From Persicaria tinctoria (Eukaryota > Streptophyta > Magnoliopsida > Caryophyllales > Polygonaceae), in assembly GCA_037127255.1 (NCBI GenBank), contig JBANSL010000004.1:75724627-75788626 (forward strand): 64,000 bases of DNA. Direction: 5' to 3'. The position numbers and the translations under genes are program-made. The notes below the pieces were generated by a model, which was not told the origin of the DNA, made no database searches, and saw nothing but the letters and a program-made list of their open reading frames with translations. How positions within the stretch are numbered: position 1 is the first letter of the stretch; every line of letters starts with the position of its first letter. Positions 493 through 61,602 of this stretch are shown here, piece by piece.

Positions 493-1270
493 AATGCAAA
501 ACCGAAAGCCCTGGTGTAGCCAGTTGTGTATATATAGCAGCAGATATGAGATTCAGCAGTAGCAATTTAGCAAGAAGAAGAAGAAGAAGAAGCAGCGTTT
601 GAAGTTGTCAGGCGTCCGAGGTTTGGGTTTCCACGCCTTCTATTAAATTTGAAAGAGCTGGTTGGAGACACCTCCTCGAAGGAGACTCTTTAGTGTGTTG
701 ATAACACTGCTACTATATATTCACACGTATATTCTTACTATTTATATACTAAGGTAGACTTTCATTCAGTCTGATACTCGGTATGAGAATCCGATTGACT
801 ACTACTTTAAACTGTAAAACAATGAAAACCCAGAAACTATTGCTACTGGATTTAACCTTCTCTTCAGTGAGGACTCTGTATTTTGCTTTGATTGTTCTGC
901 AATTGAACGCTGAATACATTTGTTCATGTCAATTAAGCACTTTTTGCTGCTTTGCTGGTGTTCTACTTGAATCAATAAATTTGGCTTTCACATCTCATTA
1001 GAACAACTCTGGAGATACCATATGGAAACCTCTGTGCATTATAACTAGAAAATGGTGATCCATGTATCATAGTTTTAGCGATTCGTGTCACTTTCATATC
1101 GTCGTGTTGCTTCATATCGAATCTGCATTATCGTCGTGTTTGCTGCGATATGAAGTCAAATATATGTACATTTTCGTGTGCCAATTGAACACTTTTGACA
1201 TTCACAATTAAAGAAGATACATCAAACCCTCAAACTGAAAAAAGCAAACAAACAACAAAAAATAATAAAA
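493..1270 (+). other. 3' UTR of the bHLH gene and spacer to the GH28 gene
   Basis: No coding region is seen. The first part is probably 3' UTR. An AATAAA-like signal occurs near 975. A purine-rich (AAG)n run lies at about 574-592. The A-rich stretch just before 1271 is the likely 5' UTR of the next gene. Confidence 0.5.
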
Positions 1271-3576
1271 ATGCAAAACTTATCTCACGCCCTTTTTGCA
1301 CTGATCGCCCTCCTCCACTTATCCCCTCTCGCCCAATCACGCCCTCCCTCGATTCTCTCCGCAGTTCACCACCACCGCACCACCACCGGGAGATCTGTCG
1401 CCGACTTTGGTGCGACCGGAGATGGTCTCCACTACGACACCGAAGCGATCCAGTCTGCAATCGACTCGTGCCCGCCCTCCCTCTCAACCACCTGCCGGGT
1501 TATTTTCCCGCCGGGAACCTACCTGACCGCGACGATCCACCTCAGATCTGGCGTTGTGCTTGTGATAAAGAGAGGTGCCGTGATTCTCGGAGGCCCGAGG
1601 CTGGAGGACTACCCTAGGGAGTCGAGCAGATGGTACGTCGTGCTGGCGGAGCAGGCGGAGAACGTCGGGATCACCGGCGGCGGGGAGATTAACGGCCAGG
1701 GATGGAAGTTTGTGACGAGGTTTGATGAGAGGAAGAACGTGATGGTGAGCTGGAACGAGACCGGGGCTTGCTATGGGGATGAGTGTAGGCCGAGGCTCGT
1801 CGGATTCATCGGTTGTAGGAACGTCACCGTCTCCGATGTCAAACTCAATCAACCGGCTTACTGGTGGTGCGTATTACGCCTCCCTCTCTTTCTGCTTCGC
1901 TTGAACTTCTGGTTTGCTCACATTGTTGTTTGCTGTCTTTGCTAATTTGCATCTGCTTTGACCTAATTTGGCAATTAGATTAAATTAGGGATTGGATATT
2001 GCAAATTGTTCTACTCAATCTCTTACAGAAACTACTGGACTAACTTATCCTATCGTGGTTTGCTCTTGCTGATTTGTTGACCAGTTGGTGGGCTTATCTG
2101 GATAATGATTTAACCAGTTGCAGGACTCATCTTATCTAAGAATTCATATACCAAATTTAGGAAAAAGATAGGAGGGAGGAAAGCACGGATTTGTTCTCCC
2201 ATTGGGTTACATTTGCTATGGCAATTTGGAATAGTTAGATTGGAATATGTCAAACATTTGCAATAAGGGATAGATTTGAAGATGTGAAACTAGCTTTTCC
2301 CAGATTGTATACAATATTGATAAAACCAAATGATCTCAAAATTCGTCCGGCAACCCGGGATTCAGGATTAGTAACAACTAAAACCCCAAGTTCAACCCAT
2401 CCATCTATTCATTAAATGTGCTCTTCTGTTCCATGAAATCAAACAAGGGCAAATACCAGATGCCAATGGATTTATCTAGTTGATATCTTGAATTCTGGCA
2501 GTCCCTGTAACTAATCTGGCTGTTGTAGACCGAGTCTTGGTTGACCTATGTGAGATGAAAGACCCTGAATTTGGTGTGGATCTGATGAGTTTAATTGTAT
2601 TGTTAACTTGTTGTGTAGCCTGCACATTGTAGAATGTGATCAGACTTCTATCCACGATGTTTCAATAATTGGGGACTTCAACACGCCCAACAATGATGGA
2701 ATCGATATACAAGATTCCAATAACACAGCCATCACGAGGTGTTACATAAACACTGGGGATGATGCTATTTGTCCGAAGACTAACAATGGCCCCCTTTACA
2801 ATCTGACTGCAACAGATTGCTGGATAAGATCCAAGTCTTCTGCCATCAAACTGGGAAGTGCGAGCTTGTTTGATTTTGGAGGACTTGTTTTTGACAACAT
2901 AACCATTTTTGAATCTCATAGAGGCCTCGCACTTCAAATCCGTGATGGAGGTAATCACCAGAGCCTGTGCTTGAATCATTTTCCATTTATTTCTCTCCCA
3001 TTTCAATGCTCTTGGTCTTTAGAAACTGTTTGATCTTAATAGCTACCTAGTCCTCAGAAAAAAAAACATGCAATTTTTTGCGCAGGGAACGTGAATGACA
3101 TAACATTCTCCAACATAAACATCAGCACAAGATACTATGACATCTCATGGTGGGGAAGAGCGGAACCAATCTATGTGACCACCTGTCCACGCGACCCAGG
3201 CACCAAAGAAGGAACAATCTCAAACATAAAGTTCATCAACATTACAACCGTCTCCGAGAATGGCATCTTCTTATCCGGGTCCAAGCATGGCCATGTTCGG
3301 AACTTGAAGTTCATAAATATGGACATCAAGTACAGGAGATGGACGGATTACCCTGGTGGCTTGGTGGATTACAGGCCTGGATGTCAGGGGCTTGTGAAGC
3401 ATAGTATGGCCGGAATCATCATGGAACATATGGACGGATTCGAGATTAAAAACGTGAACATGAGATGGTCCAAGGATGGATCAAGGGATTGGGATGACCC
3501 CTTGGAGTTTAGGCCTTCAACTGTGAATAATATTTCAATTTTCAATTTTTATTCTGGTTTGTATGATACTAGGTAG
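1271..3576 (+). CDS. GH28 polygalacturonase-like protein, complete, 3 exons
   Basis: Exons are 1271-1866, 2619-2950 and 3086-3576, joined by GT-AG introns in consistent phase to give 472 codons plus a TAG stop. The start Met opens a hydrophobic signal peptide (about residues 1-23, ending LAQS), so the protein should enter the secretory path to the cell wall. The N-terminal VADFGATGDG motif is the classic start of plant GH28 proteins. Further on come NTPNNDGIDIQDSNN, then GDDAICPK, where two acidic catalytic residues sit, then SSAIKLGS and ALQIRDGGN in place of the usual GHG and RIK motifs. This motif set fits the plant clade of 'probable polygalacturonase' or pectin-lyase-like proteins resembling Arabidopsis At4g33440. 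Pectin cleavage is therefore inferred rather than certain, since the canonical His/RIK site is altered. Length is normal for the family and no break is visible. The sequence after 3576 is 3' UTR. Confidence 0.9.
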
Positions 3577-4865: not shown

Positions 4866-5154
4866 TGTAAATATTTTTTTGCTAAAAAATGCATTAAATT
4901 GTTACTTTAATTTTCAGAGTTAATATATTGTTAAAATAATAAGTTAATCAAATACCGTATTTACTAATAAAGTGATAATTTACATTTTTAAAGATTTCCA
5001 AAGCATAAGCAGCTTTATTCATAACATTTGGGTGATTTTGTAAAAACATATAAATTTATGGATGGTTTTCTAAATAGTCCCTCTTTAGTAGCTAGTTTGT
5101 GAAATTTATCCTAATCTAGAAGTATCTTCATCTCACTTGCCATCCGCACACTTG

Positions 5155-8100
5155 GGCCGTGTTTGGCAACGAGATGGGGGTAGCTGGATGGGGATGGAAT
5201 TTTGGGGATGGAAGGGATGGGGATGAAATTTCGGGGTGGACCGGGTGGAATTTTGAATTCAGTTTAATCCCGTTCGTGTTTGGTTGTGGGTTAAAGTTTA
5301 TGGGATGGAAGTCACTGAAAAAGACACATTTGCCCTCCCAAATACCCCTCAAACCCAACTCACATTACACCGTTTACACACCAAAACGATCATGGAATTG
5401 ATCGCCTTCAACTAGATTTCTTCAATTGCACTAAAATGCAACACATAAGGTATTAGAGATTCACAATCACCATTTATAATTACAAACTTATCCTCATTAG
5501 ACATAAATTTGACCAGGAACTAAAAAAGAAGCAACAAAATTGAAATAATGGACAACACTTTAGAAAGTAAAAACAAACACATTTGACAGAAATTTTATCA
5601 GGCATTTGAGCAATCTCTAGTGGAAGTGGAAGGCCAGTGGGTGCTCCGGCGGTGCCGCCTCCTGTTCGTCGGTACCCTCCACCTTCTTTGCTTCCTGATC
5701 CACTTGGTTGTGAGCCAGATCCGTTCCTTTCGGGTCCAGATCTGGTTTGTACCATTCATCGTCGTTCTCGTTTGTGTGCTTCCTCAAAGCTTGTTCCCCT
5801 AGATCTGTGCTTTCATGGCGCTCGTTTCCCCTTTGGATTTGGTATTGTATTCTTCCTCTCTTGCCCTAACCTTTCCTTCTTCTGATTTCTGATCTTTCTT
5901 TAGCTTATTTTCTTCGTCTCTTTCCTCCGACCTTCCAGCTCACTCCCTGCTTCCTTTCTTACCTATTTTGAGAGTCGACTTGCGCTCCGCGCTCTTTTCC
6001 TTCCCCCTAACCAAATCCAGTTCTCTACTTTGAGGGTCGACTCCCTCCTGTGTCGTTTGTTGCTTCCTCTCTCTGCCTTCTTCTTCGGTGTCCTTTTCTG
6101 TCTGGTTTGAGAGTCTTCTCGTGCTCCGCGTTCCTCTCCTTTGCTGTGTGCTGTTCTGCTTTCGTTGTTTTGAGAGTCATCTCTTGCTCCGTGTGTTTTC
6201 TTCTCTTTTTTTAGTCTGTTTCCAAGCCTTTTGGTTGCCAATTGCCATTGCTGAACTAAGCTGTTGTTTTGAGAGTCGTTCGGCCCCCCTTTGAGTATTG
6301 AATCTTCAAACTGCCCCTCGGTACCGAGCTCCGGCGTCAGCCCCCCTCGGTATCGAGATCATAGCCTCTTCTGAGCGTCTCCTATAGGCAGACTTCGGTA
6401 CTAAGCTCCATCAACTTTCTTCCTTGATACCGACCCTTTTGGTCTCCCTCCGAGCTTTGTCTTCCTGACGGGGAGCTCCGCGATTTGCTTGGGCTCCCCG
6501 TCGGGTCTCCATCTTTGCTTCTGGCTCCCCCTTTTGCCTGCCCCAGTCGGATTCCCTTCTGATTGCTGCTCCTGCTTGGTTGAATGTTTTGATGTTTTTC
6601 TTCTTTGTCGTTACCGCGACCGCGGCTGCGAATGACATCGCACACCCCATGACTGTTCCCACCTGCTGCTGCGACCTCTTTGGTTGCTTCAGCGATTGCC
6701 CCACAAAACGTACTCGCGGCCGCGTTTGACGTCCACCTGCGCCCGCGACTACCCTGCCGCGGCTGTGAATAGCTATGCTCACAGTCTCGACTCTCCTAGT
6801 CGTGGCTGCAACTGAACTCTCCCGCTGACGCGTTCTCTTTTGCGTTTCAGCTATTGCTACCTTGCTGCAGCCACGCCCCAATGCCCAGACTGGTTGAATG
6901 ATCCAACTGCAGCCTATTGAGTAGGATTTTGCTTTAGGTGTGCATGCGCGTTTATGTTTTGTAGGATGATTTTCTCGGATGGTTATCATGTACTTTTGTA
7001 GGATGGTTGTAGGGGCCTGCGTGTCTCAGTTATTGCCTAGGTTCGTACTTGGGGTTTGCAACCTTGAGTAGGACCCATTGTCGGTTCTCCTAGTTAAGTC
7101 CTCGGGCCTAACCAGGGGTGACCCTTCTTTTTCATTTCCGCACTTCTTATGTAAAATATATATTATTAATACAATTTTAACCTTAAAATCAAAAAAAGGA
7201 AGAGGAGAAATTGGACCATTGAAATTTGAAGTGGAAGAGGAGAAATTGGACCATTGGAGAAGGCAATCAATTGATAATAATAATAATAATGAAAAAAAAA
7301 GTCACTACAAGATGATGGCAATCAATTGCATCCACAGCTTCATCGTTTGAGCTCTTCAATTCACCTCCAAAGGCCTTCACTGAATTCCTTGGTTCTACTC
7401 TTCTTTTTTGTGCTTTTTTTGTTCCAGTAGCCTGTCTTTCTTCTCTTTTTTTCCCTTGTGTTTTTTTCCTTGCACCAGTGGCCTCCTAATATACACTAAT
7501 TGGGATCTACCCACAACACCAGTTACAAATTGCAACGCGTTTACTCCACAACACCGGCAGAGGACTAATTGAAGACTCCGACCGCCGAATTGGAGGTGGC
7601 GGCATTGCAGGTGGCGGTGGTGGAGGGGGAGGCGGCGACACTGTTGGTGGAGCTGTGATGTTATTCAATTGGCGCAATTCAGGAGATGAAGGCTGGCTTC
7701 CCTTTGATGAGAAACATGGAGAAGCCGGAGTGGACAGACTGGGGACGACGGAAGAGAGACCATCGGTGAGTCGGGGAGAGAGAGAAGATAGACCGGGGCG
7801 GCTAGTAGCTCCCAAATACCTATCGATCGAAGGCTATTGAAACTGATTATGAGATCGATAGTGCTCGGAGGTGCTGCTGCTCGAGGGAAGGCGGTGAAGG
7901 TGCTGGTGTGGTGGCCGGTAACAGGAGGAAAGGTAGAAGGAGTATATGGGTCGGATTTACGAGGAGAGAGGGAAGGGGAAGGGGCAAATCCGGGATAGGA
8001 ACCCTTCGCATCCCGTCCATTTCCCTCAAATCAGATGGACCTCTCACCCGCGCTCACCCTCTGCATCCCCTCATTCCCATCCCGCTCCACCCCTTCGCAT

Positions 8101-8182
8101 CCCATGTCAAACGCGCGGACGCGACTCCCGAGAAGCCACCCCCACCCCTCCCATCCCCTCCCACCCCGTGCCAAACACGGCC
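5155..8182. mobile_element. PIF/Harbinger-like non-autonomous element, ~3.0 kb
   Basis: The left end GGCCGTGTTTGGCA and right end TGCCAAACACGGCC are perfect 14-bp inverted repeats, each flanked by TTG as a 3-bp TSD. Both termini continue into GGATGGG-rich sequence (about 5170-5300) and its complement (about 7990-8170), the usual subterminal look of plant Tourist/Harbinger relatives. No transposase frame was recognised inside. The interior holds pyrimidine-rich and GC-rich blocks and a glycine/proline-codon run at 7590-7650, probably captured or low-complexity sequence. A hAT or other superfamily is possible because the TSD is only 3 bp and not the usual TWA. Confidence 0.65.
5960..6290. repeat. 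Degenerate repeats of a TTTTGAGAGTC-led unit
   Basis: The phrase TTTGAGAGTC or a close variant recurs at about 5968, 6033, 6107, 6168 and 6264. It is often followed by a YTCGYGCTCCGCG-like phrase. Spacing varies from 61 to 96 bases, so it is an old and irregular array inside the Harbinger-like element. Confidence 0.55.
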
Positions 8183-8289
8183 TTGGTATCAGCAGAAGCC
8201 TCCATTCTATATTACATAGGACACGCCACGTCAATCACTTACCTGTCCGTCATTAAATAAACCAATAAAAAAACGTTTCGGCTATATAC

Positions 8290-8600
8290 ACCGCAAATCC
8301 CCACGTCCTTAAGGACGTGCAAGTGGAGGGAGAGCCAAAAAAGGGGGACGTGCTGCACGTCCCTAAGGACGTGCAAGCCCGCCTTCTAAAGGCGAAGAGG
8401 ACGTGCCTCTTCGTCTTCCTTCCTTTCTTCTTCCTCCCGACGCCTTCCTTCCCTCCGTCTTCCTTCTTCCTTCCTTCTTCCTTCTTCCTTCTTCCTCCTC
8501 CCTTCCTTCTTCCTTCTTCCTTCCTTCTTCGTCTTCCTTCCTTCCTTCTCCCTAAGGACGTGCAGCACGTCCTTAGGGACGTGCAAGAGTTCTGCTTACA
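8290..8600. repeat. MULE 5' subterminal array: GGACGTGC palindromes and (CTTCCTTC)n tract
   Basis: GGACGTGC or its complement occurs at about 8296, 8313, 8346, 8353, 8367, 8399, 8556, 8562 and 8578, several of them forming head-to-head palindromes such as ACGTCCTTAAGGACGT. Bases 8404-8550 are a polypyrimidine microsatellite of CTTC/CTTT units. At the other end the same motif appears at about 11763 and 11785. The likely role is transposase binding, inferred from position only. Confidence 0.7.
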
Positions 8601-8709
8601 AATCACGCAACAGTGTCTATTTAAAGTGATTGAGGATAGCTTGGTTCCGCACTCCAAAACAAAGTCCGACTTCTTACAATTAAAGCGAAGGAGGATATCT
8701 GGAATCGTT

Positions 8710-11590
8710 ATGGCCGAACCACAAAGCAATCCTTGTCTCCAAGTATCTCAGGTACGTATAGGTTTCGTAGAGTGAATATATTTCGTATTCGTTCCGTTTT
8801 GTTCATATTTTCAATTATGTGAATACAGTTTCGAGACTTTACGTCTGAGTTCTCGGACCCAAGGGTTTGGAATGACCGTGACGAAATGGTTACGCATTTC
8901 AAGGACTTGGGTCGGAGACACTGCATGATTTTGGTAATCAAGCGGTCTTGGACGGGGGCGTCGAATCGTCCAGGCGGGGTTCTCCTTGCATGCGAGCAGT
9001 TTGGGGAGTACCGACCACGCGAGAGGAAGCTCCGGAGTACACAGTCGAAGATAAGTGGTTGTCCATTCTCTCTGCACGGACACGAAGCTCCGCCGGGTCA
9101 GTGGCGCATGACGGTAACCCATGGTGTTCATAACCACGGGCTTTCCACGAGCTTGAAGGGTCACGCCATCGCCGGTCAGATGACAGAGGAGGAAAAGAAG
9201 ATGGCGAGGTGGATGAAGGAAGTTGGCACTCCTCCAAAAACCATTGGGTACGGATTGAGGCGGTTGGATGAGACCAGCGTCACGTCAAGGAAGAGCCTTA
9301 CCAACACGCTCGCCATGATGGTCGCCGAAGAAAGAGGTAGTCGGACGATGACCCAGGATACCTTGCACCATCTGCGGGAAAGAAGGTACTACTACGACTT
9401 CAGACGACATCCGGATGACGACAACGTCTTGAGCGACCTCTTCCTCGCGCATCCCGACGGGATACGCCTTCTCTGAAGGTTCCATTACGTCATCATAATG
9501 GACAACACATACAAAACAAATGCGTAAGTCACTTATTTACGATTACCTTATTGCACATTTAGCCAATTATAACGTATTTTATGTGTAACATATTTACACC
9601 TGCAGATATGGGATTCCTTTGTGCGAGGTGGTCGGGCTCACACCCTCAGGCAATACTTACTGCATCGCCTATGCCTTCATGTCGCAAGAGAACGAAGACA
9701 CATACGCCTGGGTGTTGCGACAGCTTCAGATCTTGCTTGGGAGCGTTCAGCCTCAAGCTATCATGACTGATCGAGAGCTGGGTCTCTTGGCGGCGCTGAA
9801 TGTTGTCTTTCCCGACGTCCAGCATCTCCTTTGTTGGTTACACGTGACGAGAAGATGCGAAGAAGCTGCTCTGAAGATCACGAAGAATTTACACCACGCC
9901 GGCATCTTTAAGGGCAACTGTTGAGGGCTGTTCGAATCGAGGTCGGAGGAATCATTCAACCGACGTCGTCGGGCGCTACGAGCTTATTGGCACCCATTCC
10001 CAGGTGTGGTGGCGTATTTGGAGTCGGTTTGGCTTCCATACAGCAGGAGCATAGTTCGGTGCTACGTAGATAAAGTCTTCCATCTCGGCACCCGTACGAC
10101 AAACAGGTACAACCTTACTTCATATCTCCCATTACAATATGATATAATATCGAATATTCATCGCCTATGCACTTCAATGTGTACAGAGTTGAGGGTCAAC
10201 ACAAGGTTCTGAAGGAGGCACTTCACTCATCGACTGGTGACTTCCGCATCGTGATCGATGCAATCCATAGAGTCAATGATTGTCAACTGCATGAGCTGCA
10301 AACTGCTTTGGAGATAGACCGATTCAAATGGTCAACAACGGCATATAAAGTCAACCTTTTCGATGAGGTAAAGACTTTAATCTCCAAAAAGTGCTTCGAT
10401 TATCTGTACAAGATGTGGCAGGACGTCGTGAACCAAAAGGCTCCTCCGGTATGCACGGACCGACATTGGAGGGTTTGTTACGGGATCCCTTGTGTCCATG
10501 AGATTCAGGCATACGTCAACTCCGGCACTCCAATACCCGCCGAGGACATCCACCCGTTCTGGATGGATTTGACATGGACTGACCTCGACGACACCCCACT
10601 GCCGTATGAGCTGTCATCTTCATATACGACTTCCAACGATGTATGCGAGGATGAGCTGCACCCACCCTCATCAGCAAGCGTCCGACGGAAGGGGAGGCCT
10701 CGGGGGTCGAGAAATGCCTGCAGAACCAACCCGTTTCCATACGAGGAGGTAAGGGAAAGGTTTGCGAGAGAAGAAGCGCGTGCTGCTCGAAATGCTGCTC
10801 GGCCTCGTCCACAAGCGACCTCAGCTCGACGTGGACGTGATGATGTGTTCGGAGGGTTCAACTGGGGTCGAAACAACGTTGATCCCTTCATGTTTGGTCA
10901 TATTGAGATGGTGAGGGACACTGTTGGAGATGGTCATTGTGGCTACCGTGCTTTGGCGGCTTTGACATCACCGATCGGCGAGACTGCTTTCCCGGAACTC
11001 AAGACGTTACTATGCAATCACTTGGAGGATCACGCCGATCTGTACGCCGGTTGTTATACGGGAGAGTACCCATTCCAGCAGTTCGTCGACTACCAGAGAT
11101 GTGCCGGAGCCACACATGGTGATAGGAGACAGTGGATAGAGCTTCCCATCATGGGTTTAGTATTTGCGACGGTATATCAGATTCCTCTCGTCGTCCTAGC
11201 TTGGCATCATCCGTTCACATGTCTCCCCATGATCTCACCGGCATCTGCTAACAACCCTCCCCAATCAGCAACTCTTGGTGTAGCCTGCATCGGAAACCAA
11301 GACCATTTTGCCGCGGTACGACTTCAAACGTCTTTGTTATTACCTATTCATGGTTTTCATACATATGTCAATACTCTAACTCTAAATTTTTGTTCTCATA
11401 GATCTGGTTGCGTCCTAACGCTCCTCTTCCGCCGCCTCCACTAGAATGGGTCGAACATCATCATCCGAGCGTCGAAGGATGGGATGCTCCGTTTCAAGCT
11501 CAGATTGAGAGATTTAGAGCCTTGCGTGCCGAGCCGGCCGTCCTTTACTGTTTTCCTAGATTGTATTCCACAACTTTATTAAACTTATGA
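8710..11590 (+). pseudogene. MULE transposase with C-terminal OTU-like cysteine protease domain, two in-frame stops
   Basis: Five exons (8710-8751, 8829-9523, 9606-10106, 10187-11315, 11402-11590) join in phase to 852 codons with good GT-AG sites. The order of parts is: an N-terminal DNA-binding-like region with ISGCPFSLHG; NHGLSTSLKGHA, typical of MULE proteins; first catalytic Asp in IIMDNTYKTN; second Asp in IMTDRELGL, followed by the CWLH motif; catalytic Glu in TTNRVEGQHKVLK, which spans the third intron; and a SWIM-like CYGIPCVHE. An AT-hook-like KGRPRGSRN linker follows. The OTU-like domain has VGDGHCGYRAL (catalytic Cys) and NQDHFAAIWL (catalytic His), again split by an intron. TGA codons at 9474-9476 and 9922-9924 interrupt otherwise conserved sequence (the second probably replaces a Trp). 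Transposase function in the nucleus follows from the family. The OTU role is unknown. Confidence 0.88.
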
Positions 11591-11842
11591 ATGTAAACCT
11601 TTTTTTCCGTTCCTTGTAACTTTATTCGCATATTATCCGAATGAAAACCTTAACAATTCTTGTGTTCTGTTTAATTTGACCCTAAATCCTTCAAATCCAC
11701 CTTCAATTTTATCAATTAACATCCCTAAACCTAAACCCACAACTAGGGATTGCACGTTGTTAAGGACGTGCAATGTGTAAATAGTGGACGTGCAAGTCCT
11801 TAATCCGGATTTGCGGTGTATATAGTGGCACCCTAAAAAAAC

Positions 11843-12159
11843 ATATACATTACTCCGTATATGTTAATCCATGTCATACCGCCACATCATTCACTCCTTT
11901 TCTCCACAACCCCCTTCCCCCAATGTTTTGTTAATCACCTTTCAGTTTTATAATCGTCACACCTTGCTTGACTAACCACCCCATTAGCCCTACTATTTAA
12001 ATATAAAACCATATCTAAATATTATACTTTTTAAATCATAATTATTTTTATTTATTATTCATCTCCTTATTTTATTTTATTTTATTTTTAAGTCATTTTT
12101 ATATTTAATAATTTACCATACCGAGTATTATTAAAATTATACTCCGTAACTAACAAAAC
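11843..12159. other. AT-rich spacer
   Basis: No coding potential or repeat structure was recognised between the MULE and the next Stowaway. It has short A/T tracts only. Confidence 0.4.
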
Positions 12160-12399
12160 TACCCCATCCGTCTCGCAATACTTGTTATTTTAGAGTAGTA
12201 AATAGTAATAGTAAAGTTGCATAAAAAAAACTTGTTATTTTAGCTATAATTATTATCTTTATAGGTAATATTTTTTTTTTTTATAGATAATAATTACTGT
12301 TTTTATGTATTTTAATCTATAAAAATAAAGTAAACATAAATTTTTGTTAATAAGTGTACATAGAGCTAAAACAACAAGTGTTGTGAGACAGATGAAGTA
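12160..12399. mobile_element. Stowaway-type MITE
   Basis: The left end CCCCATCCGTCTCGCAATAC and right end GTGTTGTGAGACAGATGAAG are complementary inverted repeats flanked by TA. TIR continues through CTTGTTATTTTAG. The interior is AT-rich and non-coding. Confidence 0.8.
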
Positions 12400-12976
12400 T
12401 ACAGTATTACACTACTGTATTAGATTTATACTGATCCTGTAAAATTTAAGGTCTCGTACTAGTTTGAAATTGAATGAATGTGCAATGTCAAATTCGAGGA
12501 GGGGTCACGAAGCTCCTCGTTCCACATTTGCCTCCCACTTTTTATTCTTCCGTTACTTTCAATCAATTACTGTCTTGACTTTGCCATCGTCTGCTTTTCG
12601 TCCTATTTTACTCTTTCTTCGGTTTCCTCTTTCGCTGTCATCTAATTTTCCAATTTGTACAACCCTTTCTTTCCATTGTTGTGGTTCGTGGAATGCACTT
12701 CTTGTGAAAGTCTTGCTGCATCAAATTCTTCAAGTACCGTTTGAACAGAAAATTCAGGTAAAAGAAATCCAAGTAGCAATTTACTCTAATTTACCTTTTT
12801 TTAAACCCTCCTTCAGTCCTTTGGTTTGTTGAATTTGGTTCTGGGTTTTCTGTTAGACCAGTTTTTGCTACTGACCGTGATTGGCTCTTCTGGGTTTGTG
12901 GGTTTTGGTTGCTTGCTGAAATAGATTCAAGAGACCAGTTAAAGGGCTTTTTGTGTTCTTCCCACCTTGCTCTCCA
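12400..12976 (+). other. 5' flank / 5' UTR of the NEK gene
   Basis: This is the region ahead of the NEK start codon. A pyrimidine-rich stretch (12530-12680) and a possible 5' UTR intron (donor CAGGTAAAAG near 12756, acceptor near 12924) are compatible with a leader exon, but no clear TATA box was fixed. No separate gene seen. Confidence 0.35.
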
Positions 12977-15900
12977 ATGGACGAAGATGATAGTGATATG
13001 AAGTCAAAGATGGAGGAGTATGAGGTGATAGAGCAGCTTGGAAAAGGGGCTTTTGGAGCTTCTTTCCTTGTTCTCCACAAAACCCAGCAGAAGAAGTAAG
13101 TAATTTCCAACCTCCAATCTTTGTATCCCTTTGTTTTAGCCCTAATTAATCAGTGGGATTGAGGAAATTACACGGAAATGTTTTGGCTTCTTAGAATTGA
13201 CTTTGATCGAACTGCATAAAAGGGCCTATTTGATGTGCCTTGGTATAGGCTATCCATGAGGAATGGACAATATGAATGTATGGTAATGAGCCAACCCAAG
13301 ATCTTGGGACAGGTACGAGGGAATGGGTTAGAATGAGTTTCACTCCCATTCTGAATGCAAAGTATCAGGTTGGAATCCCTTTTCCGCCTCCAAACCCATT
13401 CCAACTCGATATCTGGGAGATACCAAACACGCCCTTTGTCATGTCTAGAATGTTTCTAGTTATATATTTAGCTCTCTAATTTATTGAATTTTGCTTAGGT
13501 ATGTGATGAAGAAGATGCACTTGGCCAAACAAACGAAGAAGTGCAAGCGCATAGCACATCAGGAGGTACTTTTAGACCTGAAAATGAAACTTTTGATTCT
13601 ATGGCTACCAGCCACTCGCAGGAGTAATTTTACTTGCATTCACTAGGGGAGTTTATTTCAAATTAAAGTGTTATTATCCATCTGCACAATGCTTCAATTT
13701 GCAGGGGAAAAAATCTTTATCTTTTGACAAATATAAAAGGAATAAGGATATGTTTTAGAAGGGCAATTAGTACATACTACCTTCGACAGGAAATGTTTGT
13801 GCTTTATGCCGCAAGTTTTGATCTAAAATTTGCATTCCAAATTTGTTAGTAGTAATCCATAAATGAGGTATGGGTTATTAGTAGTATTAATTGAGAGAGA
13901 AATTAGTTTGAGTAATAAATAAGTGTTTTTGCCTATTTTAGAAGTTCCTTCAAATTTGTGCTAAAAACTAAAATGAGAAATATTTTAGATTGGAATGAGT
14001 ATTTGGCATCTTTAGGCTCGATCGAGCCTAGTTCATGGCCTAGGAAGGAGATGGAGAGTGTTGATATGCTGAATTAACCAGCTATTGATCTAGGATAGAG
14101 ACTTTCCAGATTGCTATAAGGGGCCAAGAGAAAAGAAAGGAAGTATAAGAATAAGAAGAAGACCTAAAGAAAGGAGAAGTCGAGAAGGATAGTTTATGAT
14201 ATTCAATCTGATATCTCCCAAACGATTACAATCAACACTATATAGGATATAGTCTCTTTCTATCATAACTAAATATGAATAGTACTGCAGTATTATCCAG
14301 TGTGATTGTGTAAATGTATCTAGTTCTTACTCTGAAGTCTGAATAAATCCAGTACATGACATAATCTTCCTCTTCTTGTGCAGATGGAGTTGCTTTCCAA
14401 GCTGAGAAATCCATACATTTTAGAATACAAAGATACTTGGGTTGACAAGGTAGGTTCTAGTACATTCGTCATTGGATCTTATGATTAGAGTCTCCATGTA
14501 AAATCATATTTATATTTGGAATGAATGAGGCAGTTCTAAAACTATTGTTTCACTCACAGACCTTTCCCCTGTGGTTATACCTTTCTCATAGGATTGGTGT
14601 GTATGCATCATCATGGACTATTGTGAGGGGGGCGACATGTAAGTGATTACTATTCCTATGGCTTTTTTGTGAGCGAATATGTGGAACTGTGGAAGAGAAT
14701 GAGAAGTGAGGAGGTTATAATTCAAGCTTGTTTGGTTTGGTTAAAGTGGTTCGGAACCGTGTTTTGTGGGAGCCCTTGGTATTGTTCAAGTATAAAATTT
14801 AGTTGTTCATTGACATTAAACCCTGTGAAGAGTTGAAATACTCTCATCAGTGAAGGCTGGTTTTCCCTCCCTCCCACTTTATGGTCCAAATACAGTTCTT
14901 AAATTTGAGCCAAACAATATGTAGTATTGCATTTTGTAAACCATATGTTGGTTCCTAAAACTATCCCTCTTATGCATGTTTTCTGATTTCTTTTGTAATT
15001 ACGTATTACTTTCTATATATTTACCACTTCAAAAAAAAAAAAAAAAAAAAAAGGCTGAATGGATTAATTGGATGAGCAGGAATGAGCTGATTAAGAAGGC
15101 CAAAGGAATGCTTTTTCCTGAAGAGGTAAACGCAGAATATGATTATAGTGACCTATGTGAGTTTACATGAAAAATCACTCCCTTTGTCCTTCAGAAAGTC
15201 TGCAGGTGGACGACCCAGTTACTATTAGCTATAGACTACCTCCACTCAAATCGAGTTGTTCATCGGGATCTTAAGGTTCGTACGCATCGCCATCCCTGTG
15301 ACTTCTTGCAATGTTGCACTGTTCTCGTCTTTCATTTCAATGATCTCTGTTCTGATTTATGTTTTTGATGTTAGTGCTCGAACATATTCCTCACCAAGGA
15401 AAATGACATCCGAGTTGGTAAGGTGGCAAAGCCAACTGTCTTCATTTCATCCTTTTTCTTTTCTCTACATAACTTTCTATATATCATTCATGGAATGTTC
15501 AGGTGACTTCGGGCTTTCAAAACTACACAGTCCAGACGCTCTTGTTTCCACGGTAATGACTCACTCTTTACTCGAATCTTAGCATTTAATAAAACCTCAT
15601 ATCTAGGTTATAGAGATGAGATCCTTGGCATGTAACCGTCATCAAGATATAAAAACTCTATTATCTGTCACTCTCCATCTCTATAAGGTTGTTGGCACTC
15701 CCAATCACATGTGTCCTGAGCTCTTAGAAGATGTACCCTATGGATACAAATCTGACATTTGGTCGCTTGGTAAGAAACTTTGCCACATAACTGATCTTCG
15801 TGAACCGATATCATTCACCTGAACGAGTAAAGCGGATTAATTTTCAGGTTGTTGCATCTTTGAGATTGCTGCTCATCAACCTGCATTCAGGGCTGCTGTA

Positions 15901-24307: not shown

Positions 24308-24377
24308 AGCCTATTAGCTCAATGGTAGAGCAATGTGCTCAGACACAAAAATGCGGGTTCAAATCCCGCATAGGCTA
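24308..24377 (+). tRNA. tRNA-like sequence (probably a tRNA-derived pseudogene)
   Basis: A 7-bp acceptor stem (AGCCTAT with ATAGGCT), D arm GCTC-AATGGTA-GAGC and T arm GCGGG-TTCAAAT-CCCGC fold correctly, and the A- and B-box promoter positions are filled (TAGCTCAATGG, GGTTCAAATCC). The anticodon arm is poor: TGTG pairs with CACA around a 6-base CTCAGA loop, so no normal anticodon can be assigned. It is therefore read as tRNA-derived rather than a working tRNA gene. Confidence 0.45.
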
Positions 24378-25084: not shown

Positions 25085-25155
25085 TAGCCTATGCGGGATT
25101 TGCACCCGCATCTTTGTGCATAAGCACAACTCTCTACTATTTGAGCTAATAGACT
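25085..25155 (-). tRNA. tRNA-like sequence, inverted relative to the one at 24308
   Basis: On the minus strand, acceptor AGTCTAT pairs with ATAGGCT (one wobble), the D arm begins TAGCTC, and the T arm GCGGG-TGCAAAT-CCCGC is complete. The middle arm TTGTG-CTTATG-CACAA has five pairs but again a 6-base loop. The T arm and 3' acceptor match the plus-strand copy almost exactly. Together with the extended inverted arms, this suggests both were part of one duplicated block. Confidence 0.42.
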
Positions 25156-58892: not shown

Positions 58893-59924
58893 TTAAGCAC
58901 ATGCACCACTTATGGATCTCATTCCTTTAACATATATTTTACCAGCTGGCTGGGAGATGTGATATCGATCAGTTTACAAATCAAAATACTATATTATGTG
59001 TAATCCAGTGATAAATATCTAATAAATCGAGATGCATATATAATAATGATAATTTGAGATTTATAATGCTCAATTATCAATGTAATGTAGCATTCTCAAT
59101 GAAGCAAATAACTATATATTTGTACTTGAATATTTGTTGTACTTTCTTTTTTTCAGTGTCTTTGGGAATAAATTGCAGTTTGTTATCTGTTTTAATTAAT
59201 GTTTACAAAATAAAATATAATACAAAGTAAAGACATTCTAATTTTCCTTCATTTTCAGCTTTGATTACATCAGTTCTTTCGTTTTCTCGGTAATTAAATA
59301 ATAATAATAATAATAGTAGTAGTAGTAGTTTGTAATTATGAAGACAAGTAAACAATTAGACATCTTGATTTTTATTATTATGATTTTATAATAAAGCAAA
59401 GTTTAGTTTGAAAAGAGGAAAATCATGAATTCATACAATGAGCTAGGTAAGTGCGCGGAGGCGTCAAGTTCTCATTTTTCAATATAAAGAAATATTAGAA
59501 AAAATAAAGAGGTTTTCCTAAGTCTACAACATTCTCTAAAAGCTAAATGATTCTTTAAATCTTTAAAATAGGGAAATTGTTCGAGTTGAAGCGCAAATAA
59601 TTTAAACAATATGTATTTTGTTTATTTATTTTGGAGAAATTAACAGATTTCTCATTTTGGGGATTTTAGAGTTTTGAAGAATTTTAATTTTTTGTATCCA
59701 ACAGATTATCCAAAATAAAGAAGCAACTGAAAAAATAGAGAGACTTTTCCAAATCTACAACATACTTAACAACTAAATAATTCTCTAAAACCTTTAAAAT
59801 GGAGAAGCTGTTTGAGTTTGACGCAAAAAAATAATTTTAAAAAATATATATTTTATTTTTTCATTTTGACGAAATTTTAAATGACCCATTGGAGATGGTC
59901 TTATCAACATAACAAGGAAGTCTT
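58893..59924. other. AT-rich 3' flank with diverged repeats
   Basis: No gene. A (AAT)n-(AGT)n run lies at about 59300-59328. Two diverged copies of a unit of roughly 220 bases (AAATAAAGA..., TTTTCC.AA.TCTACAACAT, CTTTAAAAT.G.GAA) occur at 59490-59640 and 59710-59870, perhaps part of a non-autonomous element ending near GACCCATTGGAGATGGTC. Confidence 0.4.
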
Positions 59925-59940
59925 AAACATTGAAGGCTCT

Positions 59941-61602
59941 CTGCACAAGAGACTACTTAATAAAAGAAAACGAATGCTAGATTTCCAAAGCCGTTACTGG
60001 AGCCAAGGGGAACAGGTTAAACATATTAGACTAAATGACACAAATTCGAGATATTTCCACCGCATTGCCTCCGTCAAACGGGGACAGAAACTCATCAAAT
60101 TTATTAAAATAGATTCGGGAACGATACTGTCTGACCACGATTTAATCAGAAATGAGTTGGCGAATAACTTTGTGGCTAGATTCAAGTCGCCGTATCACCG
60201 TGACCTATCCTTTGACACCGACCAGAATGTTATTGACAGTGAAATCTCTCCTCAACAGAACCAAATGCTTACAACACTGTTCTCTAATGAGGAGATTAAA
60301 TGCGCCATCTTCTCTATCAATCCTGACAAATCGCCAGGTCCCGATGGAATGCCTGTTGGCTTTTCTCAAACTTATTGGTCGGTTGTTGGACCATCTGTTA
60401 TCAAAGCGGTTAAGGCCTTCTTCTCGAGTGGAAGAATGCTAAGACAAGTTAATCACACTTTCATAACCTTAATCCAAAAGCGGGATAACCCAGAAACGGT
60501 CAACCATTTTAGGCCTGTCAACCTCAGCTCTATAGTTTATAAGATTATATCCAAAATTTTAACAGCTAGACTATCCAAAGTATTTGATAAACTGATTCAT
60601 CCTCTACAATCTTTACAAAGGGGAGGTCCATTCAAGGCGATATTCTAATCGCTCATGAGATTTTCCACTCATTAAGGTTTTCTAATTAAGGCCAAAAATG
60701 GATATATGACGATTAAGTTGGACATGGAAAAAACCTATATAGGTTTGAGTGGCCCTTCCTTTTCTCTGCACTTACAAAGTTCGGTTTTCATAAACAATTC
60801 ATTCTCTTGTTCAAGGAATGTGTACAAACGGTGTCATACTCTGTTCTAGTTAACGACGAACCTTCCACACCTTTTTCCCCATCAAGGGGATTAAGACAGG
60901 GTGATCCCTTGTCCCCTTTTCTCTTCATTCTCACTGCCGAGGTTTTAGCCAAAACTATTCACCGCAATTCTTCTGTTACAAAGGATGTTGGCTTTACTGT
61001 CGGTCGGGGAGAGGTCAAGATCCATTTTCTTTCTTTTGCAGACAACATAATTTTTTTTGGAAAGGCCACCCAATCAACTTGTACTAATCTAGTCGAGATC
61101 ATCCAACGCTTCTACTCTATTTCTGGACAAAAAGTAAATTTGCATAAATCTAGCTTTCAAGTGTCACCTAACACGTCTTCTACAACCATTCATATTGTGA
61201 CGGTAGCCCTGGGGATTCTACAATCGAATAACTTGGGCCCCGTTTGGTATAAATGTAGTAATCGGAATGGGAATGAAAATCGGAATTTGAATCAAAAGTC
61301 GGAATGAGTGATTTCCTATGTGTGTTGTTTGGTGTGACATGGGAATGGGAAATTCACAAATCCAACCTAAACATCCAAAATTTCAAAAGATCAAATTGAA
61401 GAGTAAATCAATTCAATCTTTCAAATTAAGAAGAAGAATACACAAAATCAACATACAATTTCATGATATCATCACAAAAATAAATAAATCTTAACAAATT
61501 TATAATCTGGAACTTGATGGTGGTTGAAAGAGAAACCCTAATCCAACCCAACGAGAGAGGTCGTTGAGCACCAGATTGAGAACCAGCTCTAGATCTGATG
61601 CG

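What the first reader, a model, noticed from the sequence alone, without database searches (positions are those of the whole stretch)
8275..11833. A near-complete MULE whose transposase is fused to an OTU-like protease
The element has perfect 9-bp TSDs, matching TIRs and one five-exon gene encoding a full DDE set (IIMDNTYK, IMTDRE, RVEGQH) and then an OTU-type Cys/His pair (DGHCGYR, NQDHFAA). A de-ubiquitinase-like domain kept in frame on a transposase suggests the element may shield its transposase, or alter host ubiquitin marks, during transposition. OTU-like domains on plant transposons are known in general. How common this arrangement is, I cannot say.
Basis: partly seen in the sequence, partly recalled or inferred. 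Interest (0 to 1): 0.8.

Follow-up and report, generated by a model that had tools for sequence, protein, structure and literature searches.

The report
Plant jumping gene carrying deubiquitinase-like domain
This is a dead, shortened copy of a young plant DNA transposon family whose transposase really does carry a domain shaped like a ubiquitin-removing enzyme, and whose full-length sisters also carry a second gene of a kind linked to gene silencing.

Summary
Corrections: the target duplication is 8 bp, not 9. The copy is not near-complete: it has two stops, a frameshift, and lacks 3.6-4.0 kb that in the two full-length sisters read (7,263 and 7,717 bp) holds a plant mobile domain (PMD) gene.
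The host genome (unnamed, 1.68 Gb) has at least 58 matching copies. The OTU is present in 18 of 18 copies picked without using it. Four of 20 fully covered copies are open.
MULE-OTU proteins occur in Aquilegia, with relatives in Medicago and Fragaria. OTU on a Hydra MULE and PMD on plant MULEs are in print; ten library searches showed no plant MULE-OTU.
New: an 8-bp motif clustered in the element's noncoding DNA. OTU function is inferred, not shown.

The parts
8266..8273 (.). left target-site duplication TAAAAAAA (8 bp)
   Evidence: 8 bp rather than 9 because C8274 recurs in sister copies
11834..11841 (.). right target-site duplication TAAAAAAA
8274..11833 (+). whole element as present here, 3,560 bp (internally deleted derivative; the two full-length sisters read are 7,263 and 7,717 bp)
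8282..8300 (+). left inner terminal inverted repeat, 19 bp; outer tip 8274-8281 does not match the other tip
11807..11825 (-). right inner terminal inverted repeat, 19 bp, perfect complement
8313..8584 (.). five-prime cluster of GGACGTGC/GCACGTCC motif, 8 sites (8313, 8346, 8355, 8367, 8399, 8556, 8565, 8577)
   Evidence: none elsewhere in the 64 kb except the 3-prime cluster
8546..8549 (.). junction of the internal deletion (3.6-4.0 kb present in sisters L044/L039, including the PMD gene, is missing)
   Evidence: alignment pieces end at element position 273 and resume at 276
8710..8751 (+). exon 1 (model)
8829..9523 (+). exon 2: N-terminal FAR1-like region (sub-threshold Pfam hit) and first catalytic Asp (9501-9503)
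9474..9476 (+). in-frame stop (residue 230); none of the 30 of 38 other copies that cover this codon has it
9606..10106 (+). exon 3: MULE transposase domain, second catalytic Asp (9769-9771)
   Evidence: PF10551, residues 235-327, begins in exon 2
9922..9924 (+). in-frame stop (residue 352); none of the 34 of 38 other copies that cover this codon has it
10187..11315 (+). exon 4: third catalytic Glu (10191-10193), degenerate SWIM-like Cys/His region, linker and OTU domain in one uninterrupted exon
10902..11315 (+). OTU domain; Asp 10929-10931, Cys 10938-10940, His 11304-11306; the last strand would continue in exon 5
11402..11590 (+). exon 5 (model); conserved APLPPP tail, then a one-base frameshift near 11533 relative to 38 of 38 other fetched copies (L009, the same insertion, shares it)
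11764..11793 (.). three-prime cluster of GGACGTGC motif, 2 sites (11764, 11786)

Best explanation
The feature is an inactivated, internally deleted copy of a young, abundant, two-gene MULE family in a plant genome (plant by its gene content; the assembly is unnamed). Shown here by sequence: the full-length sister form has (1) a PMD-domain gene and (2) a five-exon gene model for a DDE transposase whose C-terminus has a predicted OTU cysteine-protease fold with conserved Asp-x-x-Cys and His; both lie between recessed 19-bp inverted repeats, with clusters of a GGACGTGC motif in the noncoding parts. Inferred: the transposase binds the ends (inverted repeats and/or motif clusters), moves the element with an 8-bp staggered target cut, and its OTU removes ubiquitin (or a ubiquitin-like tag) from a nearby target during transposition. 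The most likely target is the transposase complex itself, which would otherwise be degraded; next likely is ubiquitinated chromatin or repair factors at the break. The window copy can make none of these proteins intact and could only be moved in trans.
Against: No Pfam OTU-type hit reached its cut-off for the window protein or for the relatives scanned; best were PF02338 E 0.11 in P0007 and Peptidase_C65 E 0.13 in P0006. One relative (P0002) has Tyr for the catalytic His. The model is of moderate confidence, and its last 15 residues are read past the donor site into intron 4, because only contiguous sequence could be folded. Among copies in this genome the OTU shows no surplus of synonymous shared variants (9 syn: 29 nonsyn shared vs 15: 51 single, p 1.0), whereas the MULE core does (18:14 vs 30:66, p 0.019); with so little divergence the test is weak. 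Only 3 of the 8 relatives reach the MULE cut-off. No transcript, protein or enzyme evidence; the exon model rests on splice signals and homology only.
Confidence: 0.7

Rival explanations
1. The OTU is a catalytically dead or dispensable passenger kept as a binding module (ubiquitin reader) or merely hitch-hiking at the transposase C-terminus.
For: No synonymous surplus among shared OTU variants in this genome; His replaced by Tyr in relative P0002; no Pfam detection.
Against: Asp-x-x-Cys invariant in 12 of 12 aligned proteins down to about 20% identity, His in 11 of 12; OTU identity between families equals that of the transposase part; present in every copy tested independently of it, 18 of 18.
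Confidence: 0.2
2. The OTU acts on chromatin rather than on the transposase: with the PMD protein it forms an anti-silencing module that removes histone ubiquitin or destabilises silencing complexes at element ends marked by the GGACGTGC clusters, as VANC proteins do for VANDAL elements through noncoding motif repeats.
For: Motif layout: 117 sites in the 700 bp upstream, 0 in the transposase gene, 102 in the 3-prime noncoding part, 0 in the downstream flank, over the 20 of 39 copies with all landmarks; PMD gene in sisters; published anti-silencing by VANC with tandem-repeat targets (abstracts of PMC5735166 and PMC10398659); proposal that MULE-borne PMDs counter silencing (PMC5418596, passages).
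Against: No VANC homologue was looked for; subterminal motif clusters are equally expected for plain transposase binding; one site lies inside the PMD coding region of L039; no methylation or histone data.
Confidence: 0.25
3. Ordinary explanation: just one more plant MULE with an accessory peptidase, covered by known MULE-OTU (Hydra) and MULE-Ulp1/PMD cases.
For: Table 1 of PMC6446971 lists an ovarian-tumour gene in MuDR-6_HM (Hydra) and PMD in most derived plant groups; UniRef names call P0006 and P0007 OTU domain-containing.
Against: The same table lists no OTU in any plant group; none of the ten paper searches showed me a plant MULE-OTU or the PMD+OTU combination (most listed papers were seen as listings only).
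Confidence: 0.4

Closest known systems
MuDR-6_HM (Hydra MULE, group 14 in the 2019 MULE survey, PMC6446971)
   Same: MULE element with an ovarian-tumour (OTU) domain
   Different: animal host, separate MULE group, no PMD listed; sequences not compared here
Plant MULEs with Ulp1/C48 domains (Kaonashi/KIU, VANDAL; melon, rice, grapevine)
   Same: cysteine protease of the ubiquitin/SUMO system carried by a plant MULE
   Different: Ulp1, another protease family; in Arabidopsis on a separate or VANC-type gene according to the review PMC13317346 (passages), not on the DDE transposase
Ginger1 transposons (PMC2836005, passages)
   Same: OTU or Ulp1 domain at the C-terminus of a DDE transposase
   Different: Gypsy-integrase-type transposase, animal hosts
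Helentrons with OTU
   Same: OTU-like protease carried by a transposon, proposed to aid transposition (PMC4067079, passages)
   Different: rolling-circle Rep/helicase element; OTU described as an additional ORF
PMD-carrying MULEs of angiosperms (PMC5418596 passages; VANDAL, MDR, MUDR groups of PMC6446971)
   Same: plant mobile domain gene inside a MULE
   Different: no OTU mentioned for their transposases; the PMD is often antisense or fused, here it is a separate upstream gene in the same direction
OTUD3 / OTUD1 / OTUD5 deubiquitinases
   Same: predicted fold and Asp-x-x-Cys...His arrangement
   Different: about 13-14% identity over the aligned part; not transposon proteins

Membership tests
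Mutator-like elements (MULE) | MULE/Mutator DDE transposase domain | tested here: met
   PF10551 E 7.7e-25, 87.7 bits against a cut-off of 27.6, positions 1-97 of 99
Mutator-like elements (MULE) | terminal inverted repeats | tested here: met
   19 bp perfect, recessed by 8 bp from unmatched tips
Mutator-like elements (MULE) | target-site duplication of 8-11 bp (range recalled; the survey table shows 8 to 11 bp) | tested here: met
   8 bp exact in 6 and 9 bp in 1 of 10 copies with both ends readable; 2 with one mismatch, 1 none
FAR1-type/Jittery MULEs | FAR1 N-terminal DNA-binding domain | tested here: inconclusive
   PF03101 E 0.04, below cut-off in the window protein; sub-threshold in relatives
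OTU cysteine proteases | OTU fold | tested here: met
   Foldseek and VIA-align best matches are OTU; predicted model of moderate confidence
OTU cysteine proteases | catalytic Asp-x-x-Cys box and His before the last strand | tested here: met
   present and conserved; Asp as third triad member is recalled from OTUD-type enzymes; geometry not measured
OTU cysteine proteases | sequence match to PF02338 or PF10275 | tested here: inconclusive
   no hit at the gathering score; Peptidase_C65 E 0.15 over the Cys box only. A detection limit, not a structural criterion
OTU cysteine proteases | cleaves ubiquitin | not testable with these tools
   needs a purified domain
PMD-carrying plant MULEs | PMD gene within the element | tested here: met
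   in sister copies (PF10536 E 5.5e-30; 25 of 40 copies); not found in the window copy, nor in the window at tblastn E below 0.7
VANDAL/VANC anti-silencing systems | element-encoded VANC protein acting on noncoding motif repeats | not tested
   only the motif layout was examined; no VANC model was searched

The most novel reading that the evidence does not exclude
A plant transposon that carries its own two-part counter-silencing kit: a PMD protein (same domain as the host MAIN/MAIL1 silencing factors) and a transposase with a built-in OTU deubiquitinase, both directed to the element by the GGACGTGC clusters in its noncoding DNA. The OTU would strip ubiquitin from silencing chromatin or from the transposase exactly at its own copies, which would help explain the recent burst of near-identical copies.
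Probability: 0.15. Interest if true: 0.75.

Novelty: new variant of a known kind. Interest (0 to 1): 0.48.

Why it matters
Transposons have more than once picked up proteases of the ubiquitin/SUMO system (Ulp1 on plant MULEs, OTU on Ginger, Helentrons and a Hydra MULE), but what these domains do for the element has not been shown in anything I read. Here the OTU sits on the DDE transposase itself, in a young plant family that includes open copies and also carries a PMD gene and noncoding motif clusters. That makes the question - does removing ubiquitin help a transposon move or escape silencing? - testable in a plant with single-residue changes.

Tried and rejected
Rejected: (1) 9-bp TSD - the ninth matching base belongs to the element in other copies. 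(2) OTU as a chance Cys/His motif - rejected by the fold match and by conservation in relatives. (3) OTU as a private accident of this copy - rejected by 18 of 18 copies chosen with an exon-3 probe.

Led nowhere: single-sequence and 4-row profile searches of solved structures gave no match; the 12-row profile gave 8 weak matches, best E 0.024, of which 4 are OTU-type proteases at the Cys box (6dx5, 7jms and 8yka appear as OTU matches; 4ium is recalled) and 4 are unrelated. Pfam OTU not detected. A third protein search from the Aquilegia OTU gave 3 proteins, one new (P0012, Lonicera, an odd gene model). Trees of OTU and of transposase parts (13 proteins) agree on the WIN/P0001-P0003/P0004, P0005/P0006 and P0008/P0010/P0011 groups but are too weak to date the fusion. 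Selection on the OTU within the genome: inconclusive; the first version was biased because copies had been picked by OTU similarity, so 18 others were added; the other regions still rest on the OTU-picked set. A residue tally used indices one off for Glu and His; use. The motif test used a single-base shuffle and a motif picked by eye. Genome counts of the inverted repeat and a search for more distant families in the host could not be obtained. The host species was not identified.

Papers: PMC2836005, PMC5418596, PMC8599713, PMC9289625, PMC8616336, PMC13317346, PMC11943222, PMC5148889, PMC6207730, PMC4067079 - passages only (the terms asked for did not occur in PMC8599713); PMC6446971 - passages and section 6 in full; PMC5735166 and PMC10398659 - abstract and outline; the other listed papers - search listing only. 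That plant MULE-OTU is not in print is claimed only for what the ten searches of the held library showed. PMC6207730, the one paper that held all four terms, names a MULE transposase and an OTU-like protease as separate microRNA targets.

Full report
Observation. Window 8274-11833 is a DNA transposon. The inner inverted repeats are 19 bp and perfect. The flanking duplication is TAAAAAAA (8 bp). Of 40 copies examined (39 fetched plus the window), both ends could be read in 10: exact 8 bp in 6 (window and L009 are one insertion), 9 bp in 1, one mismatch in 2, none in 1. The two tips (CGTTTCGG, and GGGTGCCA on the other strand) do not match each other, so the inverted repeats are recessed; one search searched with these tips included, so their constancy is partly by choice.

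Gene. The five-exon model gives 851 codons with stops at residues 230 and 352. Pfam finds MULE (PF10551, E 7.7e-25), the ZSWIM RNase-H-like model and Transposase_mut above their cut-offs; FAR1 is sub-threshold and OTU is not found. The third acidic residue (RVEGQH; its role as the DDE Glu is recalled) and the OTU Cys and His are encoded by one uninterrupted exon (10187-11315), so no splice guess is needed to see the fusion.

Relatives. Protein searches gave P0001-P0003 (95, 60 and 50% identity over the exon, unnamed contigs) and eight more: two from Aquilegia, one from Medicago, three from Fragaria, two unnamed. A third search added one from Lonicera. Pfam puts MULE above its cut-off in P0005, P0006 (Aquilegia) and P0009 (unnamed), 3 of the 8; the Medicago and Fragaria proteins align over 71-95% of the query region but have no MULE hit. 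DGHCG is invariant in 12 of 12 and the His in 11 of 12 (P0002 has Tyr). Between the window and P0002/P0003 the OTU is as conserved (98/147, 82/146) as the transposase part (82/129, 81/135), and more than the linker (43/88, 27/67). I infer that the fusion is old and present in several eudicot lineages.

Host genome. The window lies in an unnamed 1.68-Gb assembly. An OTU probe gave 40 scored matches out of 1,532 first-look candidates, all 99-100% identical. An exon-3 probe gave 40 out of 1,239, 98-100%. The two lists share 22 places, so at least 58 matching places are known. The 18 exon-3 copies outside the OTU list were read over the expected OTU interval: 18 of 18 carry it at 96-99% identity, one with a stop and two with a one-base deletion. 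Cys is kept in 57 of 57, His in 56 of 57 and Asp in 56 of 57 copies. Of 40 mapped copies 20 cover all exons; 4 of these 20 have no internal stop and no indel other than the family-wide state. Intact frames therefore exist. L009 on another chromosome shares the window's flanks at 99.8-99.9%: the same insertion in a recent duplication. The window's stops are absent from the other copies that cover those codons (30 and 34 of 38), and its last-exon frameshift is shared by none of the 38.

Two-gene element. Two elements were read end to end, L044 (7,263 bp) and L039 (7,717 bp), both with exact 8-bp TSDs. Upstream of the transposase, in the same direction, they carry a plant mobile domain gene (PF10536 E 5.5e-30 in L044). 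The family's PMD sequence is found in 25 of 40 copies within about 6.4 kb held for each, some partial (a 26th hit, L011, is a different, reversed PMD). The window copy joins element position 273 to the transposase 5' region and lacks 3.6-4.0 kb.

Noncoding motif. GGACGTGC occurs 10 times in the window, all inside the element's noncoding ends (a single-base shuffle of the 679-nt ends gives a mean of 0.008). Over the 20 copies with all landmarks (of 39 examined) there are 117 sites in the 700 bp upstream, none in the transposase gene, 102 in the 3' noncoding part and none in the downstream flank. In L044 and L039 a third cluster lies between the two genes; L039 also has one site inside its PMD coding region. 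The motif was picked by eye from the repeats, and the copies share descent, so these counts are descriptive. The layout fits transposase-binding sites, and it resembles VANC target repeats in VANDALs (abstracts).

Selection. Variants carried by several copies date from the mobile lineage; single ones are mostly decay. The MULE core shows a synonymous surplus among shared variants (18:14 against 30:66, p 0.019); the linker does too (p 0.038), the N-terminus weakly (p 0.077), the PMD exon not significantly (24:19 against 45:60, p 0.20), and the OTU not at all (9:29 against 15:51, p 1.0). This counts against strong recent constraint on the OTU, but sites are few and copies nearly identical.

Known context. 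In the 2019 survey of 1,631 MULEs the table lists an ovarian-tumour gene for a Hydra group only, and PMD for most derived plant groups (PMC6446971). OTU or Ulp1 on transposases is known in Ginger1, with the proposal that they act in transposition (PMC2836005); OTU ORFs of Helentrons have a like proposal (PMC4067079). PMDs were captured by MULEs, with a suggested anti-silencing role (PMC5418596). Ulp1-bearing VANC genes are reviewed in PMC13317346. None of the ten library searches showed me a plant MULE transposase with OTU, or PMD and OTU together.

Verdict. An OTU-transposase fusion that is real by sequence and predicted fold, here in a dead and shortened copy of a young two-gene MULE. New variant of a known kind. 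The mechanism (deubiquitination that helps transposition) is inferred, and the decisive tests are simple bench assays.

Noticed in passing
window 8313-8584 and 11764-11793; L039, L044: GGACGTGC motif clusters in the noncoding parts of the element (5-prime, intergenic, 3-prime), absent from the transposase gene and downstream flanks of 20 copies; one site inside the PMD coding region of L039.
   Followed up: partly
L039, L044 and other sister loci: Second, upstream plant-mobile-domain gene in the full-length elements, in the same direction as the transposase.
   Followed up: yes
window 5130-13114 versus L009 (G000:C14): 99.8-99.9% identical duplication between two chromosomes that includes the MULE insertion with its flanks (as far as L009 reaches).
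   Followed up: partly
window 5633-7193: 1,561-bp insertion present in the window but absent from the C14 duplicate; A-rich 3-prime end (AATCAAAAAAA), no matching inverted ends found, no clean TSD; perhaps a retroposon.
   Followed up: partly
window 10440-10510 (residues ~498-520): SWIM-like Cys/His region in which the first Cys of CxC appears lost compared with Aquilegia relatives (by eye).
   Followed up: no
P0002 (372 aa, unnamed contig): Relative with Tyr in place of the OTU catalytic His (NQDYFAA); single contig, may be a decayed copy.
   Followed up: no
P0012 (Lonicera): Predicted protein with an OTU region near its N-terminus (DGHCG at residue 171) and precomputed Pfam domains PF13456, PF00012, PF06723; perhaps a fused gene model.
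   Followed up: no
window 1199-3573: Open frames that look like a polygalacturonase-type (GH28) gene, by eye; no family search made.
   Followed up: no
window 59881-61304: Reverse-transcriptase-like open frames of a LINE, by eye.
   Followed up: no
window 24308-24377 (+) and 25085-25155 (-): Two tRNA matches (Rfam RF00005, 61.3 and 47.7 bits).
   Followed up: no
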